A stretch of DNA of 40,070 bases, taken from positions 1-40,070 of the forward strand of contig VYCT01000368.1 of the NCBI GenBank assembly GCA_009843785.1. The letters are read 5' to 3'. Position numbers and translations under genes: made by a program. The notes beneath the pieces were generated by a model that ran no database searches, was not told the origin of the DNA, and saw only the letters and a program-made list of their open reading frames with translations. Positions 9,037-39,906 of this stretch are shown piece after piece; position 1 is the stretch's first letter, and every line of letters starts with the position of its first letter. The stretch comes from Candidatus Poribacteria bacterium (GTDB lineage Bacteria; Poribacteria; WGA-4E; WGA-3G).

Positions 9037-9525
9037 TTAGTCGTCGTTATTGTTGCCGCCATCGTTGCCGCCATCGTTGCCGCCATCACCCGGAGGCGGA
9101 GGCGGAGGGGTTTCTTCTTTCTCCTCTTCTTCATCAGGCGGTGGCGGCGGAGGGCATACTTCTACGGTACACTCTTTTGTTGCTGTAACGACTTGTTCAT
9201 CTGCTTGTCTTATCGCCTCGACGGCTTGTTTCGCCGCCCCGTCTCCAGTGAGCGCTTGGAAGATCCAAACCGCATATACGGTATACTCAGTTATCTCTGA
9301 GGCACAATGTTTACACTTTTTCCAAAATGATCTTAATGGGTGCCTATGTTTCTCGCCATCAGAAGGGTTATCTGGGTGAGCATAAGCCGATATTTCAAAG
9401 GAAGTCGTTTCGTCAAAGGACTCATTTTGGAAGAGTGTCAAGACACCATCCATCATAGGTGCGGCAAAAAGCAACAACACCATCACAGACAATACTTTCA
9501 ACAGGCTCATTTGTCTCGTTTTCAT
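9037..9525 (-). CDS. Small exported protein with Pro-rich and Gly/Asn/Asp tail
   Basis: The 162-residue product starts with a clear signal peptide (LLKVLSVMVLLLFAAP). A CKHC pair lies near residue 71 and a predicted helix contains YAVWIFQAL. The C-terminal third is low complexity: a six-proline run, an acidic stretch, a second six-proline run and GGNDGGNDGG repeats encoded by a 12-bp DNA repeat near 9049-9085. The Shine-Dalgarno AGGAG is 7 nt before the ATG. The leader is about 290 nt, starts at the promoter 9824-9852, and holds a structured element and two 19-bp repeats, so expression is probably regulated in the RNA. No family is recognised. The tail may vary in length by repeat slippage. 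Confidence 0.7.
   Translation of the reverse strand: MKTRQMSLLKVLSVMVLLLFAAPMMDGVLTLFQNESFDETTSFEISAYAHPDNPSDGEKHRHPLRSFWKKCKHCASEITEYTVYAVWIFQALTGDGAAKQAVEAIRQADEQVVTATKECTVEVCPPPPPPDEEEEKEETPPPPPPGDGGNDGGNDGGNNNDD
9046..9090. repeat. 12-bp tandem repeat in coding sequence
   Basis: About three copies of a 12-bp unit close to GCCGCCATCGTT encode the Gly-Gly-Asn-Asp tail of the exported small protein. Copy number could vary by slippage without breaking the frame. Confidence 0.6.
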
Positions 9526-9650
9526 GAAAATTCTCCTATGGTTGAATTCAACGAATGGGAGTATTGCCGTGACGTAAAAAAGAAAAGGAAGGTGTCAGGC
9601 AATCCTCTATATTTGTGTATAAGGTGCTAACCTGAAAGTTTCGCAAAATG

Positions 9651-9688
9651 CATCCATTATGTGTTACAACATCCATTATGTGTTACAA
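9651..9688. repeat. Two perfect tandem 19-bp repeats
   Basis: CATCCATTATGTGTTACAA occurs twice with no spacer, at 9651-9669 and 9670-9688. The pair lies in the predicted leader of the small exported protein gene, between the structured element and the start codon. It could be a regulator-binding or RNA-processing site; nothing identifies which. Confidence 0.75.
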
Positions 9689-9715
9689 TTAGGTTAGTAC
9701 TGTCATACTCGGTCT

Positions 9716-9782
9716 ATGGCAGTGCCGCGTCGTGGGTGCTGGTAACACCCTCGGCGCACCTCAAAATAGAAGAGGCTGCCAT
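9716..9782 (-). ncRNA. Structured leader element A (three-stem junction)
   Basis: Three stems are visible. P1 is ATGGCAG (9716-9722) with CTGCCAT (9776-9782). The second arm is capped by GGGTG/CACCC (9734-9738 with 9746-9750) around a 7-nt loop. P4 is CCTC/GAGG (9759-9762 with 9772-9775). A 13-nt block, TGGCAGTGCCGCG on the plus strand (9717-9729), is identical in element B at 39803-39872, which has the same stem order with changed but still paired bases. On the minus strand it lies ~35 nt after a predicted transcription start and upstream of the exported protein gene. It matches no riboswitch I know. Confidence 0.5.
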
Positions 9783-9823
9783 GTGAAAAATATTCATGAC
9801 AACAACAATAGGAGACAGGCATA

Positions 9824-9852
9824 AGTATAGCACGTCCCGGCGTTGTTGTCAA
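9824..9852 (-). promoter_or_regulatory. Sigma70-type promoter for the exported protein/STT3 unit
   Basis: Minus-strand TTGACA (9847-9852) and TATACT (9824-9829) are separated by 17 nt, with a start near 9817. A 9-bp inverted repeat, GACAACAAC (9798-9806) and GTTGTTGTC (9842-9850), brackets the -10 region and overlaps the -35 box, so it may be an operator. Confidence 0.65.
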
Positions 9853-9909
9853 ACAAAAAAGTTGCAACGCCACGGAACGCACTTAGCGAATCCACTGCGA
9901 TGCAACACA

Positions 9910-9958
9910 AAAAACCCGCTATGCAGGACTTTGTCCGTGACAAAATCAGCATGCGGGA
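9910..9958 (-). terminator. Rho-independent terminator of the small 49-aa unit
   Basis: On the minus strand a long hairpin pairs CCCGCATGC with GC-rich sequence at 9916-9924. An inner arm pairs TTTGTC with GACAAA. The hairpin is followed at once by six T residues (9910-9915). It lies 45 nt after the stop codon of the small ORF and before the next promoter. Confidence 0.7.
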
Positions 9959-10002
9959 ACATAAGGTCTCCGGAACCGGAGCAACCCCGTGAAATACAAT
10001 AC

Positions 10003-10152
10003 TTAACGGTTGTAAAGTGGGGGGGGGGCCAGGGGTGGCAACACAGTAGCATCAAACAGGCTTCCGCACAGCGCGGATACCCAAACATCTACTGTCATTT
10101 TCAAGCGATCATCTTTCAATACGGTATTCAGAAATCGATCTCTGCTTTTCAT
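10003..10152 (-). CDS. Possible 49-residue small protein
   Basis: An ATG at 10152 opens a 49-codon frame ending at TAA (10003-10005). The peptide starts MKSRDRFLNTVLKDDRLK, has a hydrophobic middle (VWVSALCGSLFDATVL) and ends in a Pro-rich tail. It lies inside a compact transcription unit with a promoter at 10227-10255, a CCGC/GCGG leader hairpin and a terminator at 9910-9958, which is the main support for it. AGGAG is only 2 nt from the ATG, and GAGAGG is 11 nt away, so the ribosome site is not ideal. A C10 run (10019-10028) near the 3' end could slip or hide a sequencing error; with one base fewer, the frame continues into the terminator. An untranslated small RNA is the main alternative. 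Confidence 0.4.
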   Translation of the reverse strand: MKSRDRFLNTVLKDDRLKMTVDVWVSALCGSLFDATVLPPLAPPPLYNR

Positions 10153-10390: not shown

Positions 10391-12904
10391 CTACTTCCGT
10401 ATCAACATCTTTTGCGTTGCTATGAAATCGCCTGCTGTTAATGTGTAGACATAGACACCGCTCGCCACAGCCTCACCCAGTTCATTTCGGCCATCCCAAT
10501 ACGCTGCACGGCTTTTGTTATGATATATTCCCGCGGGTTGATACCCTAACGCTAACCTCCGCACCAATGCTCCATTCACAGAATAGATATGCAATGTCAC
10601 ATCCGCAGGCTTCGCTAATTGATAGGGTATCCACGTCTCTGGGTTAAATGGATTCGGATAGTTGGGCAAGAGTGCCGTTTCTTTCGGCAATAAGCGTGCA
10701 AGCAAATGCTCCAACACGAAAATGCCACGCAGATACACAGGATCTGTGAGTGCCATTTGGCGTGCTTGCGTTAGGAGTTGTTGAATCTCCGCTGCGGTGA
10801 GCCCTTCAAGATCCAATGGGTGTAAAGTTGGCGCGGTAGCCGTACCTTCTCCTAATGCGCCGGCCACCAAGACAAGGTCTGAAATGTTAACAATCCCATC
10901 GCCGTTGACATCCGCGCGATTTTGTCCCGTCTGTCCGAAATCTGATGCGACTAATACCAAGTCTTGGATATTGACGGCACCATCACCGTTGACATCCGCC
11001 GGGTTTCCAATGTTTTCGACAATCAGTGTATCATCGGCTGTGAGCGTATAGTCCCACCGTGTGATATTTCCATGCACATCAATCACTTGGAGTGCTATGT
11101 CGTTGACTTGGCGCGTTGTCAATGCCGGTGCGTTAAATTCAATGGTGCTACTTTGTGAATGTCCGTCCTGACAACTATGCAACTTGATACCAGATGCCGG
11201 GTCTTCTGCTGTCGTTGGCACCAGTAACTGGATTTGGTGGACACCATCTATATCGGTTACCTCAAATTGCAGTGTGAGGTTTTCTGCGTTTGGTGGATAA
11301 GCCGACGGCGTGAGCATCCGTAGCGTTGTCGGTTCATTGAAGGCGGTTTGGTCGGTGTTAAAGAAGCGATTCGCAGCCAACCAACCTGCGGCACACTTCG
11401 ACAACCGATCAGGAGTTTCGCCGTAGGACATGATATAAGTATCGTCGCGGAAGTCGTGTTCCAAGCCGAAAGCGTGTCCAAGTTCGTGTGCTGTTACACT
11501 TGTACCGACCTGACCGTCAAAACATCTACCTGATGCAGGAATGACAGCATAGCCGCCACGTGTTCTTGTTACCGTTTCACCTTCAAGCCAATGGCCGCCT
11601 CCGACCCCACATGTATCTTCTTGATTTATAAATTCGCTGCTGATATCTACGACAATAAGATAAGCGTGTTTCTCCATATCAAACTGAGATGCAATTTCGG
11701 TATAGACCTTGTCATGTGTTTCTGTATGATAGTGCCAGTCCGTGTGCTGCCCATCAACCCGATAGATGAGCGTTTCTCTATTTTCATCAGTTTCAAAGGT
11801 GAAGGTCTTTCTACCGAATCCGTTGCGCGCCATCTGGTCTGCGTAAAAGCGTTGAACATCTCTTATGAGGGTGTTCAGTTTATTCCAAATATCGGGTTGC
11901 ATGCTACGGTCGCGCGGGAGAAAGTAGACAATTCGTACCATATCCTCCTCAGGTATAGCACGATAGGGCGTAACGTCCCAGATTCGGAGCGTTGCATCAT
12001 CGCCGCCACTAATGAGAGCACTCCCGTCTGGAGAAAAGGCGACAGCGTTCACCCACCCTGTGTGTCCCGTGAGCGTAGTTATTTTTTCGCCACTGTCAAC
12101 TTTCCATAAGTTTATAGATTCATAACCCGTGCTGGCAAGGATTTTGCTATCCGGTGAAAAGCTGATTGTATGGGCTGTTGCGTGAGAACTCAGCTCGCCG
12201 AGGCGTTCCCAACTCTGGATTTTCCACAATTTGATATTTCCGGCGTACCCTGCCCCCGCAAGGATTCGGTTGTCTGGGGAGAACTTAACAGTCGCGATAT
12301 ATTCTGGATCCCCTTGGAGTTGAATAACAGGCTGTTGCTTTTGAACATCCCAGACGTGAATCTGTCCAGCATCGTCCCCTGTGGCAAGAAATCGTCCATC
12401 GGGTGAGAAGGCAAGGGCAAACACCCATCTGCCGTGTTGAAGTGTGGTTATCTCTTGGCGCGTCTGGACATCCCATAACTTTACATCCACACCCGCGGTC
12501 GCGAGTTGTTTGTCATCAGGAGAAAAGGCAATTGCTTTAACTTGCGATCGGCTTCTATCAACAATGTGTTCAAGCGTCACAATATGCTGTTTAAGTGGAA
12601 TATCCCATAATTTGAAGACGTAGTCATCACCCGCACTCGCGAGGCGTTGACCATCTGAAGAAAAGGCGACAGCATTGATGGTATCGGCGTGGTGTCCGAG
12701 CGTTGTTAGGGTATCGTTCTCGAAGTGCCATAAATTGACTGCACGACTACCACCGCCACTCGCAACAACGGAAGCATCTACTGGAGAATATACCACCGTT
12801 TTAAGGCTACCGCTATCTCTAAAGTAGGTGTGTTCTTGGGCAAAGACGGTGGGCGGAAGCGTTAGTAAAAAAGCTGTTGTAAGGAAGAGGTGCTTGAAGG
12901 ACAT
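10391..12904 (-). CDS. Exported WD40 - zinc metalloprotease - dockerin - FlgD-tail protein
   Basis: The start is the ATG at 12904 (AGGAAG 7 nt upstream). The longer frame to 12985 merely reads through an intergenic repeat. The 837-residue product has a signal peptide (FLTTAFLLTLPPTVFA). Seven WD40 blades cover residues ~30-315, ending in KLWDI/KLWDV/RIWDV-type motifs. A metallopeptidase-like domain has HELGHAFGLEHD at ~473-484, i.e. HExxHxxGxxH with the zinc ligands and catalytic Glu intact. Two dockerin repeats follow (DVNGDGAVNIQDL and DVNGDGIVNISDL). The C-terminus is FlgD/sorting-like, with PNPFNPETWIPY and WDGRNELGEAVASGVYVY. I infer a secreted, surface-tethered protease whose propeller recruits partners. 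Such tails recall type IX-type sorting domains, though no secretion genes are nearby. Confidence 0.85.
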   Translation of the reverse strand: MSFKHLFLTTAFLLTLPPTVFAQEHTYFRDSGSLKTVVYSPVDASVVASGGGSRAVNLWHFENDTLTTLGHHADTINAVAFSSDGQRLASAGDDYVFKLWDIPLKQHIVTLEHIVDRSRSQVKAIAFSPDDKQLATAGVDVKLWDVQTRQEITTLQHGRWVFALAFSPDGRFLATGDDAGQIHVWDVQKQQPVIQLQGDPEYIATVKFSPDNRILAGAGYAGNIKLWKIQSWERLGELSSHATAHTISFSPDSKILASTGYESINLWKVDSGEKITTLTGHTGWVNAVAFSPDGSALISGGDDATLRIWDVTPYRAIPEEDMVRIVYFLPRDRSMQPDIWNKLNTLIRDVQRFYADQMARNGFGRKTFTFETDENRETLIYRVDGQHTDWHYHTETHDKVYTEIASQFDMEKHAYLIVVDISSEFINQEDTCGVGGGHWLEGETVTRTRGGYAVIPASGRCFDGQVGTSVTAHELGHAFGLEHDFRDDTYIMSYGETPDRLSKCAAGWLAANRFFNTDQTAFNEPTTLRMLTPSAYPPNAENLTLQFEVTDIDGVHQIQLLVPTTAEDPASGIKLHSCQDGHSQSSTIEFNAPALTTRQVNDIALQVIDVHGNITRWDYTLTADDTLIVENIGNPADVNGDGAVNIQDLVLVASDFGQTGQNRADVNGDGIVNISDLVLVAGALGEGTATAPTLHPLDLEGLTAAEIQQLLTQARQMALTDPVYLRGIFVLEHLLARLLPKETALLPNYPNPFNPETWIPYQLAKPADVTLHIYSVNGALVRRLALGYQPAGIYHNKSRAAYWDGRNELGEAVASGVYVYTLTAGDFIATQKMLIRK

Positions 12905-12930
12905 AGGTTGGCTTCCTAAATCAGACGTGG

Positions 12931-13000
12931 GATGGAAAGATGGAAGGGTGGAAGGATATGGATCGCCACGCTTCCAACCTTCCATTCTTCCAATCTTGCA
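12931..13000. repeat. Purine-rich inverted repeat between genes
   Basis: A TGGAAGG-type run (12932-12955) and its complement, CTTCCAACCTTCC-like (12971-12990), form an inverted repeat in the leader of the WD40 protease gene. A related purine-rich run occurs at 14108-14160 between the two dehydrogenase genes. Both create false N-terminal extensions of the neighbouring genes. Confidence 0.55.
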
Positions 13001-37478: not shown

Positions 37479-39341
37479 TTAACGTTTTTCTTCCTCAATT
37501 GTCGGTGTTCTTTCGGTCTGTACTTTATCTACATCTACGACACATCGGAACCCGGCGGCACCGCCTCCGAGATGCTGTTGAGGATAAGGGATGAGATAGC
37601 GTTCTGTGAGCAATGCGATGCGGGGCGTTTCACGCCAAGAATTGCCGCGCAAGACGCGATGCTGCGGATCGGTGGTATCGGCACACCATTCCCAGACGTT
37701 TCCGAGCATATCGTATAAGCCGAATGCGTTTGGGAGATAAGTTCCGACGGGCGCGCTGCGGTGATGGTTATCTGCGAACCCTCCTAAATTAGCGTGTGTA
37801 CCATCTGGTAGTGTGTTACCCCATGGGTACTTTTGACCGATAAAACCGCCGCGTGCGGCTTTTTCCCATTCCGCTTCTGTCGGGAGCCGTTTGCCTGCCC
37901 ACGCCGCATACGCCACTGCATCGTCCCACGTCACATTTACGACGGGGTAATTCGGTGCCGGCGCGTCGGCATAAGTTTCCTCTGGTAACGGACGGTGCCC
38001 GGTCTGCTTAAGGAATACTTCGTATTGGGCGAGCGTGACTTCGTGTATGTCCATATAAAATCTATCCGTATGGACGGGATACGCTGGTAACTGTTCATCT
38101 TTTCGGGCAGGTGTGCCCATCCGAAACGCGCCTTCTGAAATCAGCACCATCTCAGCACCGTCTTTTTCCCACGTAATCGCTTCAGACGGGCCCTCGATTT
38201 CCAATTCAGCATTCCAGGCGAGGGTTTCGCCGCGCTTCAAGACCAGTTGGGTTTTACTGACTTTGTAACCCGTATGTGCTACCTGGACTGTTACGTGTTC
38301 ACCCTGCGTATCGGTGTCAATCTCATAAAGCAGCGGGGTTTCGCCGACCATTTTTTCACCAATATGAACGGTTGCACCGCTCGGTTCGCTTGTGATGGCT
38401 AAGGTAGTGCTTGTCGCGTTTTCTAAGGCATCCTCGACGCTTGTTGGTAATGAATGGACGAGCGGTGTCTGTACGGTTTGTGCATCTGAGAAGTTCACGT
38501 CATTAAAAAGGGTTGATGTCTTTAATGTGCAGTGTGCCAGCACTTCCTCCCAGGAAAGGAATCCATCCGTTTCCTTTTTATCTGATAAAACACCATCGGT
38601 GTCAGCAGTGAAACTCTCAACAAGGGCGGCGGTAAAGTAGCCACCGACATCGTTGTTCCCGAACACAAATTGCCCGGGGGCAGCGGCGGTAACATCAAGA
38701 ATGCCGGTGTGTTGGAGAAAGATATCCTCGGTATGAAGGCGGTTTTCCGGGAGTTCCTCCGAGAAAGTGACACTCACGTTTGGGCCGGAAGTCTTCACAT
38801 AATTACTGCAGGTATTGGTAATCAACATTTTCAAATTCGCTGGCTTTTGTTCCAGCCATTGACGGAGTTTTGCGCGCGGGACTACGTCCTTGCTCTGATC
38901 AAAGTTAAGCACATGCTCGCTGTCAAAACTCTGTATACTGCCGTGTCCATTGTAGTAGACGAGAACTGTATCTGTTTGATTGGAATCTAATTGGTGAAGC
39001 CACTCTTTGACATCCTTACCTCTGATAATCCCCTGTTTGTTGTCTATAATGCCGTGGGGTTCCCCCTGGACGAGTGTCATTTTCATGATGCTACCGAGCA
39101 GCTCATCCTCAGATTTCATGAGGGTCAGATGGACATCACAGTGGTGTGAGACGAGCTGCATGACTTCCTTCATGCGCCCCTCACTTTTTTCGACACTTGT
39201 TCGGATGTTCACGTCATTTCCGAGTATAATGAAAAGCGCGTGAACTTCTTTAGCAGTAGCGACAGATACCGGTCCCACGAAGAGAACCATTATCAGTAGT
39301 AGCAGAAACCCTGCAGTGGGCAAAGTGTATGTGCGGTTCAT
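37479..39341 (-). CDS. Exported caspase-like protease with PEGA and FGE-fold domains
   Basis: The 620-residue protein has a signal peptide (AGFLLLLIMVLFVGPVSVATA) and then a C14 caspase/metacaspase-like domain (~32-290). The catalytic His is in VYYNGHGS (H133) and the nucleophile is in LITNTCSNY (C178). A PEGA domain follows (~311-380; SEPSGATVHIGEKMVGETPL), with an FGE/SUMF1-fold domain at the end (~396-606; VLISEGAFRMGT, GKRLPTEAEWEKAARGG, YPWGN, LGNVWEWC, RVLRGNSW). The region after RGNSW has no active-site Cys pair, so it is probably a binding module. AGGAGG is 5 nt before the ATG. PEGA and signal peptide place it outside the inner membrane. It lies just upstream of the Hsp70 cassette; its leader starts at the promoter 39878-39906. 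Confidence 0.88.
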   Translation of the reverse strand: MNRTYTLPTAGFLLLLIMVLFVGPVSVATAKEVHALFIILGNDVNIRTSVEKSEGRMKEVMQLVSHHCDVHLTLMKSEDELLGSIMKMTLVQGEPHGIIDNKQGIIRGKDVKEWLHQLDSNQTDTVLVYYNGHGSIQSFDSEHVLNFDQSKDVVPRAKLRQWLEQKPANLKMLITNTCSNYVKTSGPNVSVTFSEELPENRLHTEDIFLQHTGILDVTAAAPGQFVFGNNDVGGYFTAALVESFTADTDGVLSDKKETDGFLSWEEVLAHCTLKTSTLFNDVNFSDAQTVQTPLVHSLPTSVEDALENATSTTLAITSEPSGATVHIGEKMVGETPLLYEIDTDTQGEHVTVQVAHTGYKVSKTQLVLKRGETLAWNAELEIEGPSEAITWEKDGAEMVLISEGAFRMGTPARKDEQLPAYPVHTDRFYMDIHEVTLAQYEVFLKQTGHRPLPEETYADAPAPNYPVVNVTWDDAVAYAAWAGKRLPTEAEWEKAARGGFIGQKYPWGNTLPDGTHANLGGFADNHHRSAPVGTYLPNAFGLYDMLGNVWEWCADTTDPQHRVLRGNSWRETPRIALLTERYLIPYPQQHLGGGAAGFRCVVDVDKVQTERTPTIEEEKR

Positions 39342-39636: not shown

Positions 39637-39679
39637 TGGAGACGGGAGGTAGGGGGTCTACCTCGGTAATCCGTCTCCA
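39637..39679. other. Strong hairpin in the caspase leader
   Basis: TGGAGACGG (39637-39645) pairs with CCGTCTCCA (39671-39679), and GAGGTA (39646-39651) with TACCTC (39659-39664), giving 15 bp with one 6-nt bulge. It lies in the predicted 5' leader between the promoter at 39878-39906 and the small ORF. It could attenuate transcription, although no clear T-run follows on the minus strand. Confidence 0.5.
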
Positions 39680-39802
39680 ACGCCCATTCGTAGGGATACA
39701 AGATTTTACGAAAAAATCAAGTAAAATTACGACGCTGCTTAAAATATCAGAGACATCAATAGCGATGTATGATATACTTAAACACGCACTAGCAATCTAC
39801 GC

Positions 39803-39872
39803 TTGGCAGTGCCGCGGTTCGGGAGTCTACTACACTCGCCGAACCACCTGTAAAGGATTTTACGGATGCCAA
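39803..39872 (-). ncRNA. Structured leader element B (three-stem junction)
   Basis: P1 is TTGGCA (39803-39808) with TGCCAA (39867-39872). The second arm is GGTTCGG/CCGAACC (39816-39822 with 39839-39845), capped by GAGT/ACTC (39823-39826 with 39834-39837) and a 7-nt loop. P4 is GTAAA/TTTAC (39850-39854 with 39859-39863). The block TGGCAGTGCCGCG (39804-39816) is identical to element A at 9717-9729. In the minus sense the loops end in AG in both copies. The -10 box at 39878-39883 puts the transcript start almost exactly at the first base of the element. Confidence 0.5.
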
Positions 39873-39877
39873 AACAT

Positions 39878-39906
39878 ATTATAGCAAAAAAGAAAATAAA
39901 ATACAA
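39878..39906 (-). promoter_or_regulatory. Sigma70-type promoter for the caspase leader
   Basis: Minus-strand TTGTAT (39901-39906) and perfect TATAAT (39878-39883) are separated by 17 nt, with a start near 39872. It would drive a ~530-nt leader ahead of the caspase gene. The remaining sequence to 40070 is AT-rich with no gene seen. Confidence 0.55.

What the first reader, a model, noticed from the sequence alone, without database searches (positions are those of the whole stretch)
9716..9782. Candidate structured RNA family, copy A
A three-stem junction with a 13-nt block is shared with 39803-39872, in the same sense orientation and in the leader of another exported protein gene. The paired bases differ between copies while pairing holds. 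This is good evidence for RNA structure and suggests a riboswitch-like or protein-binding leader.
Basis: partly seen in the sequence, partly recalled or inferred. Interest (0 to 1): 0.62.

Follow-up and report, generated by a model that had tools for sequence, protein, structure and literature searches.

The report
Antisense-RNA cassettes in Poribacteria gene leaders
The two matching RNA hairpin sets look like members of a new family of small antisense RNAs, found in about ten copies per genome in sponge-dwelling Poribacteria, each transcribed backwards from inside the leader of a different gene and probably used to hold that gene down, as plasmids do with their copy-number control RNAs.

Summary
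The repeat is real and the RNA structure is real, but it is not a riboswitch leader. Covariance models found the element 1-17 times per genome in 56 of 59 genomes of one Poribacteria family and in 0 of 26 genomes outside that family. Fixed G-U wobbles show that the + strand is the folded RNA. Each copy has an extended -10 promoter for this RNA. Just beyond its 3' end lies a sigma70-type promoter on the - strand, pointing back into it; this held on 37 hold-out copies (p below 1e-6). The nearest left gene is on the - strand in 93 of 101 cases. So each copy is best read as a cis-encoded antisense RNA within the long 5' leader of the '-' gene (exported protein, caspase/FGE protein, DNA methylase, sigma factor), laid out like RNAI/RNAII, CopA/CopT or FinP/traJ. 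The loops are near-neutral in sequence and differ between copies in one genome; H2 loops are enriched for the U-turn motif of kissing antisense loops. Transcription, direction of regulation and its step are inferred, not shown.

The parts
9681..9689 (+). Copy A: extended -10 (TGTTACAAT) of the antisense RNA promoter; predicted start about 9696
   Evidence: TGnTA(C/T)AAT conserved at this place in nearly all copies
9696..9780 (+). Copy A: antisense RNA core (R): hairpins H1, H2, H3, then CTGCC
   Evidence: R2 hit at 9695-9782; MFE fold from the start gives H1-H2-H3, z -3.5
9697..9725 (+). H1 hairpin; 7-nt loop CTCGGTC at 9708-9714
   Evidence: Covariation in 5 of 10 pairs, 98.5% paired; G-U:A-C 100:0
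9727..9757 (+). H2 hairpin; 7-nt loop CTGGTAA at 9739-9745 (U-turn type YUNR)
   Evidence: Covariation in 4 of 11 pairs; U-turn enrichment in H2 loops
9759..9780 (+). H3 (CCTC..GAGG, 9759-9775) and conserved CTGCC (9776-9780), which could alternatively pair with GGCAG 9718-9722
   Evidence: alternative pairing has no covariation
9625..9699 (.). Palindrome (TGCTAACCT .. AGGTTAGTA) around the R promoter; would be an RNA hairpin in the - strand mRNA leader
   Evidence: Palindrome kept with different sequence in each subtype; - strand folds better in 64 of 80 copies
9824..9852 (-). Copy A: - strand promoter TTGACA-N17-TATACT with TG; predicted mRNA start about 9817
   Evidence: 11 of 12 matches and the only promoter hit in 9450-10050; conserved across copies
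9905..9927 (-). - strand terminator-like site just before that promoter, separating it from the upstream WD40 gene 10391-12985
9526..9817 (-). Predicted 5' leader of the target mRNA; its first ~120 nt are complementary to R
   Evidence: inferred
9562..9605 (-). Second leader hairpin ATTGCC..GGCAAT around a pyrimidine-rich loop
   Evidence: recurrent GGATTGCC motif in leaders
9037..9525 (-). Predicted target of copy A: exported protein, 162 aa, no Pfam family
39770..39778 (+). Copy B: extended -10 (TGATATACT) of the antisense RNA promoter; predicted start about 39785
39785..39870 (+). Copy B: antisense RNA core: H1 39786-39812 (loop TCTACGC), H2 39816-39845 (loop CTACTAC), H3 39848-39865, TGCC 39867-39870
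   Evidence: R1 hit 39782-39878, E 3.1e-18; fold
39878..39906 (-). Copy B: - strand promoter TTGTAT-N17-TATAAT with TGC; predicted mRNA start about 39871
   Evidence: same element in the other B-type copies
39638..39678 (-). Copy B: second structured leader element GGAGACGG..CCGTCTCC with GATTACC (GGATTGCC in relatives)
   Evidence: conserved in B-type alignment
37479..39341 (-). Predicted target of copy B: caspase-PEGA-FGE-sulfatase protein, 620 aa; leader about 530 nt
   Evidence: Pfam

Best explanation
Each copy is a cis-encoded antisense RNA cassette in the 5' leader of a protein gene. Shown by sequence: a + strand RNA of about 85-160 nt, with its own extended -10 promoter, folds into tandem hairpins with 7-nt loops. 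A sigma70-type promoter on the - strand lies at its 3' end and points through it towards a gene that is almost always on the - strand. Inferred: the - strand promoter makes the gene's mRNA, whose first ~100-150 nt are fully complementary to the antisense RNA. The antisense RNA meets its own mRNA by loop-loop (kissing) contact at H1 and H2, the pairing spreads, and expression falls. Because the two loops come from the same DNA they can drift without losing the match, so each cassette is likely to act only on its own gene. The step affected is not settled. The antisense region ends 75-300 nt before the ribosome site, so direct blocking of that site (as in FinP) is unlikely. Premature termination at the palindrome hairpin, or cleavage of the duplex, is more likely.
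For: H1/H2 covariation. Strand polarity by G-U:A-C, H1 100:0 and H2 43:6. Conserved extended -10 for the + RNA. - strand promoter at +96..+160: mean score 8.16 against 6.65 in three controls (n=79), and on 37 hold-out copies 8.19 against 6.61-6.82, p 4e-7 to 8e-7. In the window it is the only promoter found in the region, 11 of 12 matches, directly after a terminator on the same strand. Left gene on - strand 65:6 and, hold-out, 28:2, while the right gene in the hold-out is 15:14. The shared core of divergent copies spans only palindrome + R + promoter. Loops always about 7 nt, nearly neutral in sequence, mostly different within a genome. U-turn YUNR in H2 loops 0.53 against 0.34 shuffled, upper bound 0.45. 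The palindrome folds better on the mRNA strand in 64 of 80.
Against: No transcript data: both promoters are consensus matches. No consistent change of ribosome-site accessibility when the R-complementary region is blocked. Terminator-like sites in the leaders are only weakly in excess, 21 against 13.6, and R has no clear terminator (10 against 7.6). The U-turn excess is not significant for H1 alone. Loops are no more different within a genome than between genomes. Window copy B has two mismatches in H1. The window's B-type leader (530 nt) is long enough for another promoter to drive the gene.
Confidence: 0.72

Rival explanations
1. A family of trans-acting small RNAs, each with its own promoter, that regulates other mRNAs through conserved single-stranded parts (GGCAG, CTGCC) rather than its own leader.
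For: Own promoter, many copies, conserved CTGCC without structural need; GGCAGU is complementary to the AUUGCC motif that recurs in the leaders.
Against: Predicted pairing to the gene-proximal leader is no better for cognate than non-cognate pairs (mean rank 0.48). This rival does not explain the conserved - strand promoter or the fixed gene orientation.
Confidence: 0.12
2. A cis-acting riboswitch or protein-binding leader read in the sense of the gene.
For: Lies in leaders of exported proteins; the - strand also folds well.
Against: G-U polarity puts the fold on the other strand; loops not conserved; no Rfam match.
Confidence: 0.06
3. Type I toxin-antitoxin loci: the small exported proteins are toxins and R is the antitoxin RNA (hok/sok, yonT/SR6 type).
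For: Antisense RNA over a leader; several A-type targets are short exported proteins without a known family.
Against: Targets are diverse and often large: DNA methylase, sigma factor, caspase-FGE protein. A special case of the best explanation at most.
Confidence: 0.07
4. A mobile palindromic repeat (MITE/REP-like) or single-strand DNA recombination site (conserved arms around a variable 7-bp centre).
For: Multi-copy; copies often near contig ends; conserved inverted arms with variable 7-nt centre.
Against: Fixed orientation to the left gene, two conserved promoters, G-U polarity, no sharp element ends; no hits in 2.9 million viral contigs.
Confidence: 0.03

Closest known systems
FinP/traJ antisense RNA of F-like plasmids (and its mimic RepX/repA)
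   Same: Two-hairpin antisense RNA lying inside the leader it controls; initial kissing-loop contact (PMC9977716, PMC8136791). That plasmid alleles keep the stems and differ in the loops is general knowledge (Finlay et al. 1986, cited in PMC9977716; not read here).
   Different: Chromosomal, ~10 paralogous copies per genome before unrelated genes; antisense region does not reach the ribosome site; no FinO/ProQ protein in 24 genomes searched; no Rfam match.
ColE1 RNAI/RNAII and IncFII CopA/CopT
   Same: Antisense RNA of hairpins with ~7-nt loops opposite the 5' end of the target transcript (general knowledge); U-turn loops enhance binding in such systems (PMC4485353).
   Different: Not a replication control; no replicon nearby; different sequence.
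pT181 / pIP501 antisense attenuation (RNAIII-repR)
   Same: Long leader, antisense RNA binds the early leader, structured hairpins before the coding region; would fit termination at the palindrome.
   Different: No conserved strong intrinsic terminator shown in most leaders.
hok/sok and other type I toxin-antitoxin RNAs
   Same: Antisense RNA over an mRNA leader, several chromosomal copies in one genome.
   Different: Targets here are diverse, often large proteins; toxicity unknown.

Membership tests
Cis-encoded antisense RNA of a gene leader | Two opposed promoters such that one transcript is complementary to the leader of the other | tested here: met
   (consensus and conservation, not transcript ends)
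Cis-encoded antisense RNA of a gene leader | A gene on the strand opposite to the small RNA, directly downstream of the leader | tested here: met
   93 of 101 copies
Cis-encoded antisense RNA of a gene leader | The RNA changes expression of that gene | not testable with these tools
   no expression data
FinP/FinO | Two stem-loops recognised by a FinO/ProQ-domain protein | tested here: not met
   Hairpins yes but PF04352 absent from 24 genomes, control rings in E. coli
FinP/FinO | Antisense RNA covers the target's ribosome-binding site | tested here: not met
   start codon lies about 75-300 nt beyond the R-complementary region
RNAI / CopA / other Rfam antisense families | Match to the family's covariance model | tested here: not met
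   no Rfam match in window or 18 loci
Kissing-loop antisense RNAs | U-turn YUNR motif in a recognition loop | tested here: inconclusive
   H2 enriched 0.53 against 0.34, H1 not significant
Antisense-induced transcription attenuation (pT181, pIP501) | Intrinsic terminator in the leader, formed when antisense RNA binds | tested here: inconclusive
   21 leaders against 13.6 expected; several A-type palindromes end in a U tract
Riboswitch | Conserved sense-strand aptamer core in the leader | tested here: not met
   fold is on the antisense strand; loops vary
Mobile palindromic repeat | Copies placed without regard to genes | tested here: not met
   left gene orientation 93:8

The most novel reading that the evidence does not exclude
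A portable chromosomal antisense cassette (palindrome + antisense RNA + mRNA promoter) has spread within one bacterial family to become a set of about ten parallel RNA switches per genome, kept apart from each other by freely drifting 7-nt loops. It controls exported proteins, caspase-like proteins, restriction-modification methylases and sigma factors in sponge symbionts.
Probability: 0.5. Interest if true: 0.75.

Novelty: new variant of a known kind. Interest (0 to 1): 0.6.

Why it matters
Kissing-loop antisense control is best known from plasmids. A multi-copy chromosomal family in an uncultured phylum, in front of unrelated genes, would give a natural collection of over a hundred variant antisense pairs in which loop specificity and cross-talk can be read from evolution. 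It would also point to which genes sponge-associated Poribacteria keep under tight control. The family is absent from Rfam.

Tried and rejected
(1) Three-way junction closed by GGCAG/CTGCC: no covariation, and less stable than tandem hairpins from the real start. (2) H1 and H2 loops pairing with a site nearby: no excess over shuffles. (3) Loops as conserved seeds or as strongly diversifying: identity 0.47 (H1) and 0.64 (H2) against 0.685 at four-fold sites in the neighbouring methylase, so near-neutral. (4) Pairing of R with the gene-proximal leader: cognate no better than non-cognate. (5) A divergent gene promoter inside the palindrome: at first I read the palindrome as a bidirectional promoter, but its left -10 is poor in several subtypes and the strong promoter lies right of R. 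(6) Bridge RNA / TnpB-type mobile-element RNA: no transposase recognised among the recurrent neighbours listed. (7) Hits in Verrucomicrobia and Clostridia to the H1 pattern are chance matches without H2. (8) Ribosome-site opening or closing on R binding: no consistent effect. (9) FinO/ProQ partner: absent.

Full report
Observation. The 13-nt block and the surrounding hairpins at 9716-9782 and 39803-39872 are present as described. A shared 13-mer alone would not be remarkable in 40 kb, so I looked for more copies. The exact block GGCAGTGCCGC occurs 10 times in the own genome, 7 of them with the same surroundings. A covariance model of 6 copies (R1) found 9 matches at E<0.1 in the own genome and 2-17 in each of 14 other genomes of the genus, none in 9 genomes of other genera in the order. 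A second model from 53 copies (R2, H1+H2) over 85 genomes of the phylum found it in 56 of 59 genomes of one family and 0 of 26 outside. A DNA pattern over 84,980 species returned Candidatus Poribacteria records almost only, and the few others are chance hits without H2. Viral contigs gave none.

Structure. On a MAFFT alignment of 53 A/C/D-type copies found with R1, which contains no H1 pairs, H1+H2 are 98.5% paired, with 9 pairs and 51 cells changed on both sides; shuffles gave 2.6 pairs and 17.3 cells, slid controls at most 8 cells. The outer junction stem has no double change. From the predicted start the window copies fold as three tandem hairpins. H1 and H2 carry G-U pairs on the + strand and almost no A-C (100:0 and 43:6; a looser count), so the + strand RNA is the folded molecule.

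Promoters. Upstream of every subtype is an extended -10 (TGnTAnAAT) inside an imperfect palindrome whose sequence differs between subtypes but stays palindromic. Downstream, at +96 to +160 in most copies, is a sigma70-type promoter on the opposite strand, pointing back through the RNA. It was scored in 79 copies at 8.16 on average against 6.65 for the same region on the + strand, for a region 500 nt further, and for shuffles. I then tested it on 37 copies not used to form the idea: 8.19 against 6.82, 6.61 and 6.78, p below 1e-6 for each. In the window, an independent scan of 9450-10050 finds one promoter only, TTGACA-17-TATACT with TG at 9852-9824 on the - strand, and a - strand terminator just before it at 9927. 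Copy B has TTGTAT-17-TATAAT at 39906-39878 (below the cut-off of the scan).

Genes. If the - strand promoter drives a gene, the gene on the left should lie on the - strand and the gene on the right should not matter. The nearest left ORF is on the - strand in 65 of 71 copies, and in 28 of 30 hold-out copies; the right ORF is 50:25 and, in the hold-out, 15:14. The left genes are unrelated to each other: short exported proteins without a Pfam family (window 9037-9525), caspase-PEGA-FGE-sulfatase proteins (window 37479-39341), WD40 proteins, DNA methylases of restriction-modification type, sigma factors. Divergent copies share only the stretch from about -75 to +140, that is palindrome, RNA and - strand promoter. 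So the unit looks like a portable cassette.

Reading. An RNA with its own promoter lying wholly opposite the first part of another transcript's leader, with hairpins and 7-nt loops, is the layout of antisense RNA control. The loops behave accordingly. Their length is fixed, their sequence is nearly free (0.47 and 0.64 identity against 0.685 at four-fold sites), they mostly differ between copies of one genome, and H2 loops are enriched for the U-turn motif YUNR (0.53 against 0.34) that is found in recognition loops of kissing antisense RNAs (PMC4485353). In such a pair the target loop is encoded by the same bases, so drift does not break recognition; that would also keep the cassettes apart. 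I found no pairing partner elsewhere. This reading is inferred from anatomy and no transcript has been seen.

Step controlled. The complementary region ends about 75-300 nt before the start codon, so R cannot cover the ribosome site directly. Blocking the complementary part of the leader does not consistently open or close that site. The palindrome becomes a hairpin in the mRNA and folds better on that strand in 64 of 80 copies. In several A-type copies its inner hairpin is followed by a U tract and looks like a terminator, but the overall excess is small. Attenuation at the palindrome and duplex cleavage remain the likeliest steps. A second leader element with the motif GGAUUGCC recurs across subtypes, function unknown.

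Known relatives. By working principle the nearest are FinP/traJ, RNAI/RNAII, CopA/CopT and pIP501-type attenuation (PMC9977716, PMC8136791, PMC4485353). It is not a member of any: no Rfam match, no FinO/ProQ protein in 24 genomes, and no overlap with the ribosome site. Two literature searches combining Poribacteria with RNA terms returned no report of such an element among the papers listed. I rate it a new variant of a known kind.

Noticed in passing
window 9650-9689: Copy A's palindrome carries a tandem duplication (CATCCATTATGTGTTACAA twice) not seen in its relatives, so the spacer between the palindrome arms is longer here.
   Followed up: no
L121-L145 (D-type loci), left of the antisense RNA: In about 12 copies the same cassette stands before an N6/N4 DNA methylase of restriction-modification type, with a second structured element (CTATAGGG..CCCTATAG) in between.
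   Followed up: partly
B-type loci, e.g. L088, L096, L098: An NtrC-type sigma54 activator gene lies about 0.4-1 kb to the right of many B-type copies.
   Followed up: no
G000:C111:331-459 and L259, L260: Hfq-like domains inside longer reading frames (158-1244 aa) in 8 of 9 searched genomes of the genus that has the RNA, and rare in the four genomes searched outside it.
   Followed up: no
L082 and L093: Two copies of the RNA about 1.0 and 1.8 kb apart in one genome, of different subtype.
   Followed up: no
window 10019-10036: A run of G bases (GTGGGGGGGGGGCCAGGGG) between copy A and the WD40 gene; related A-type loci keep a similar G/C-rich stretch.
   Followed up: no
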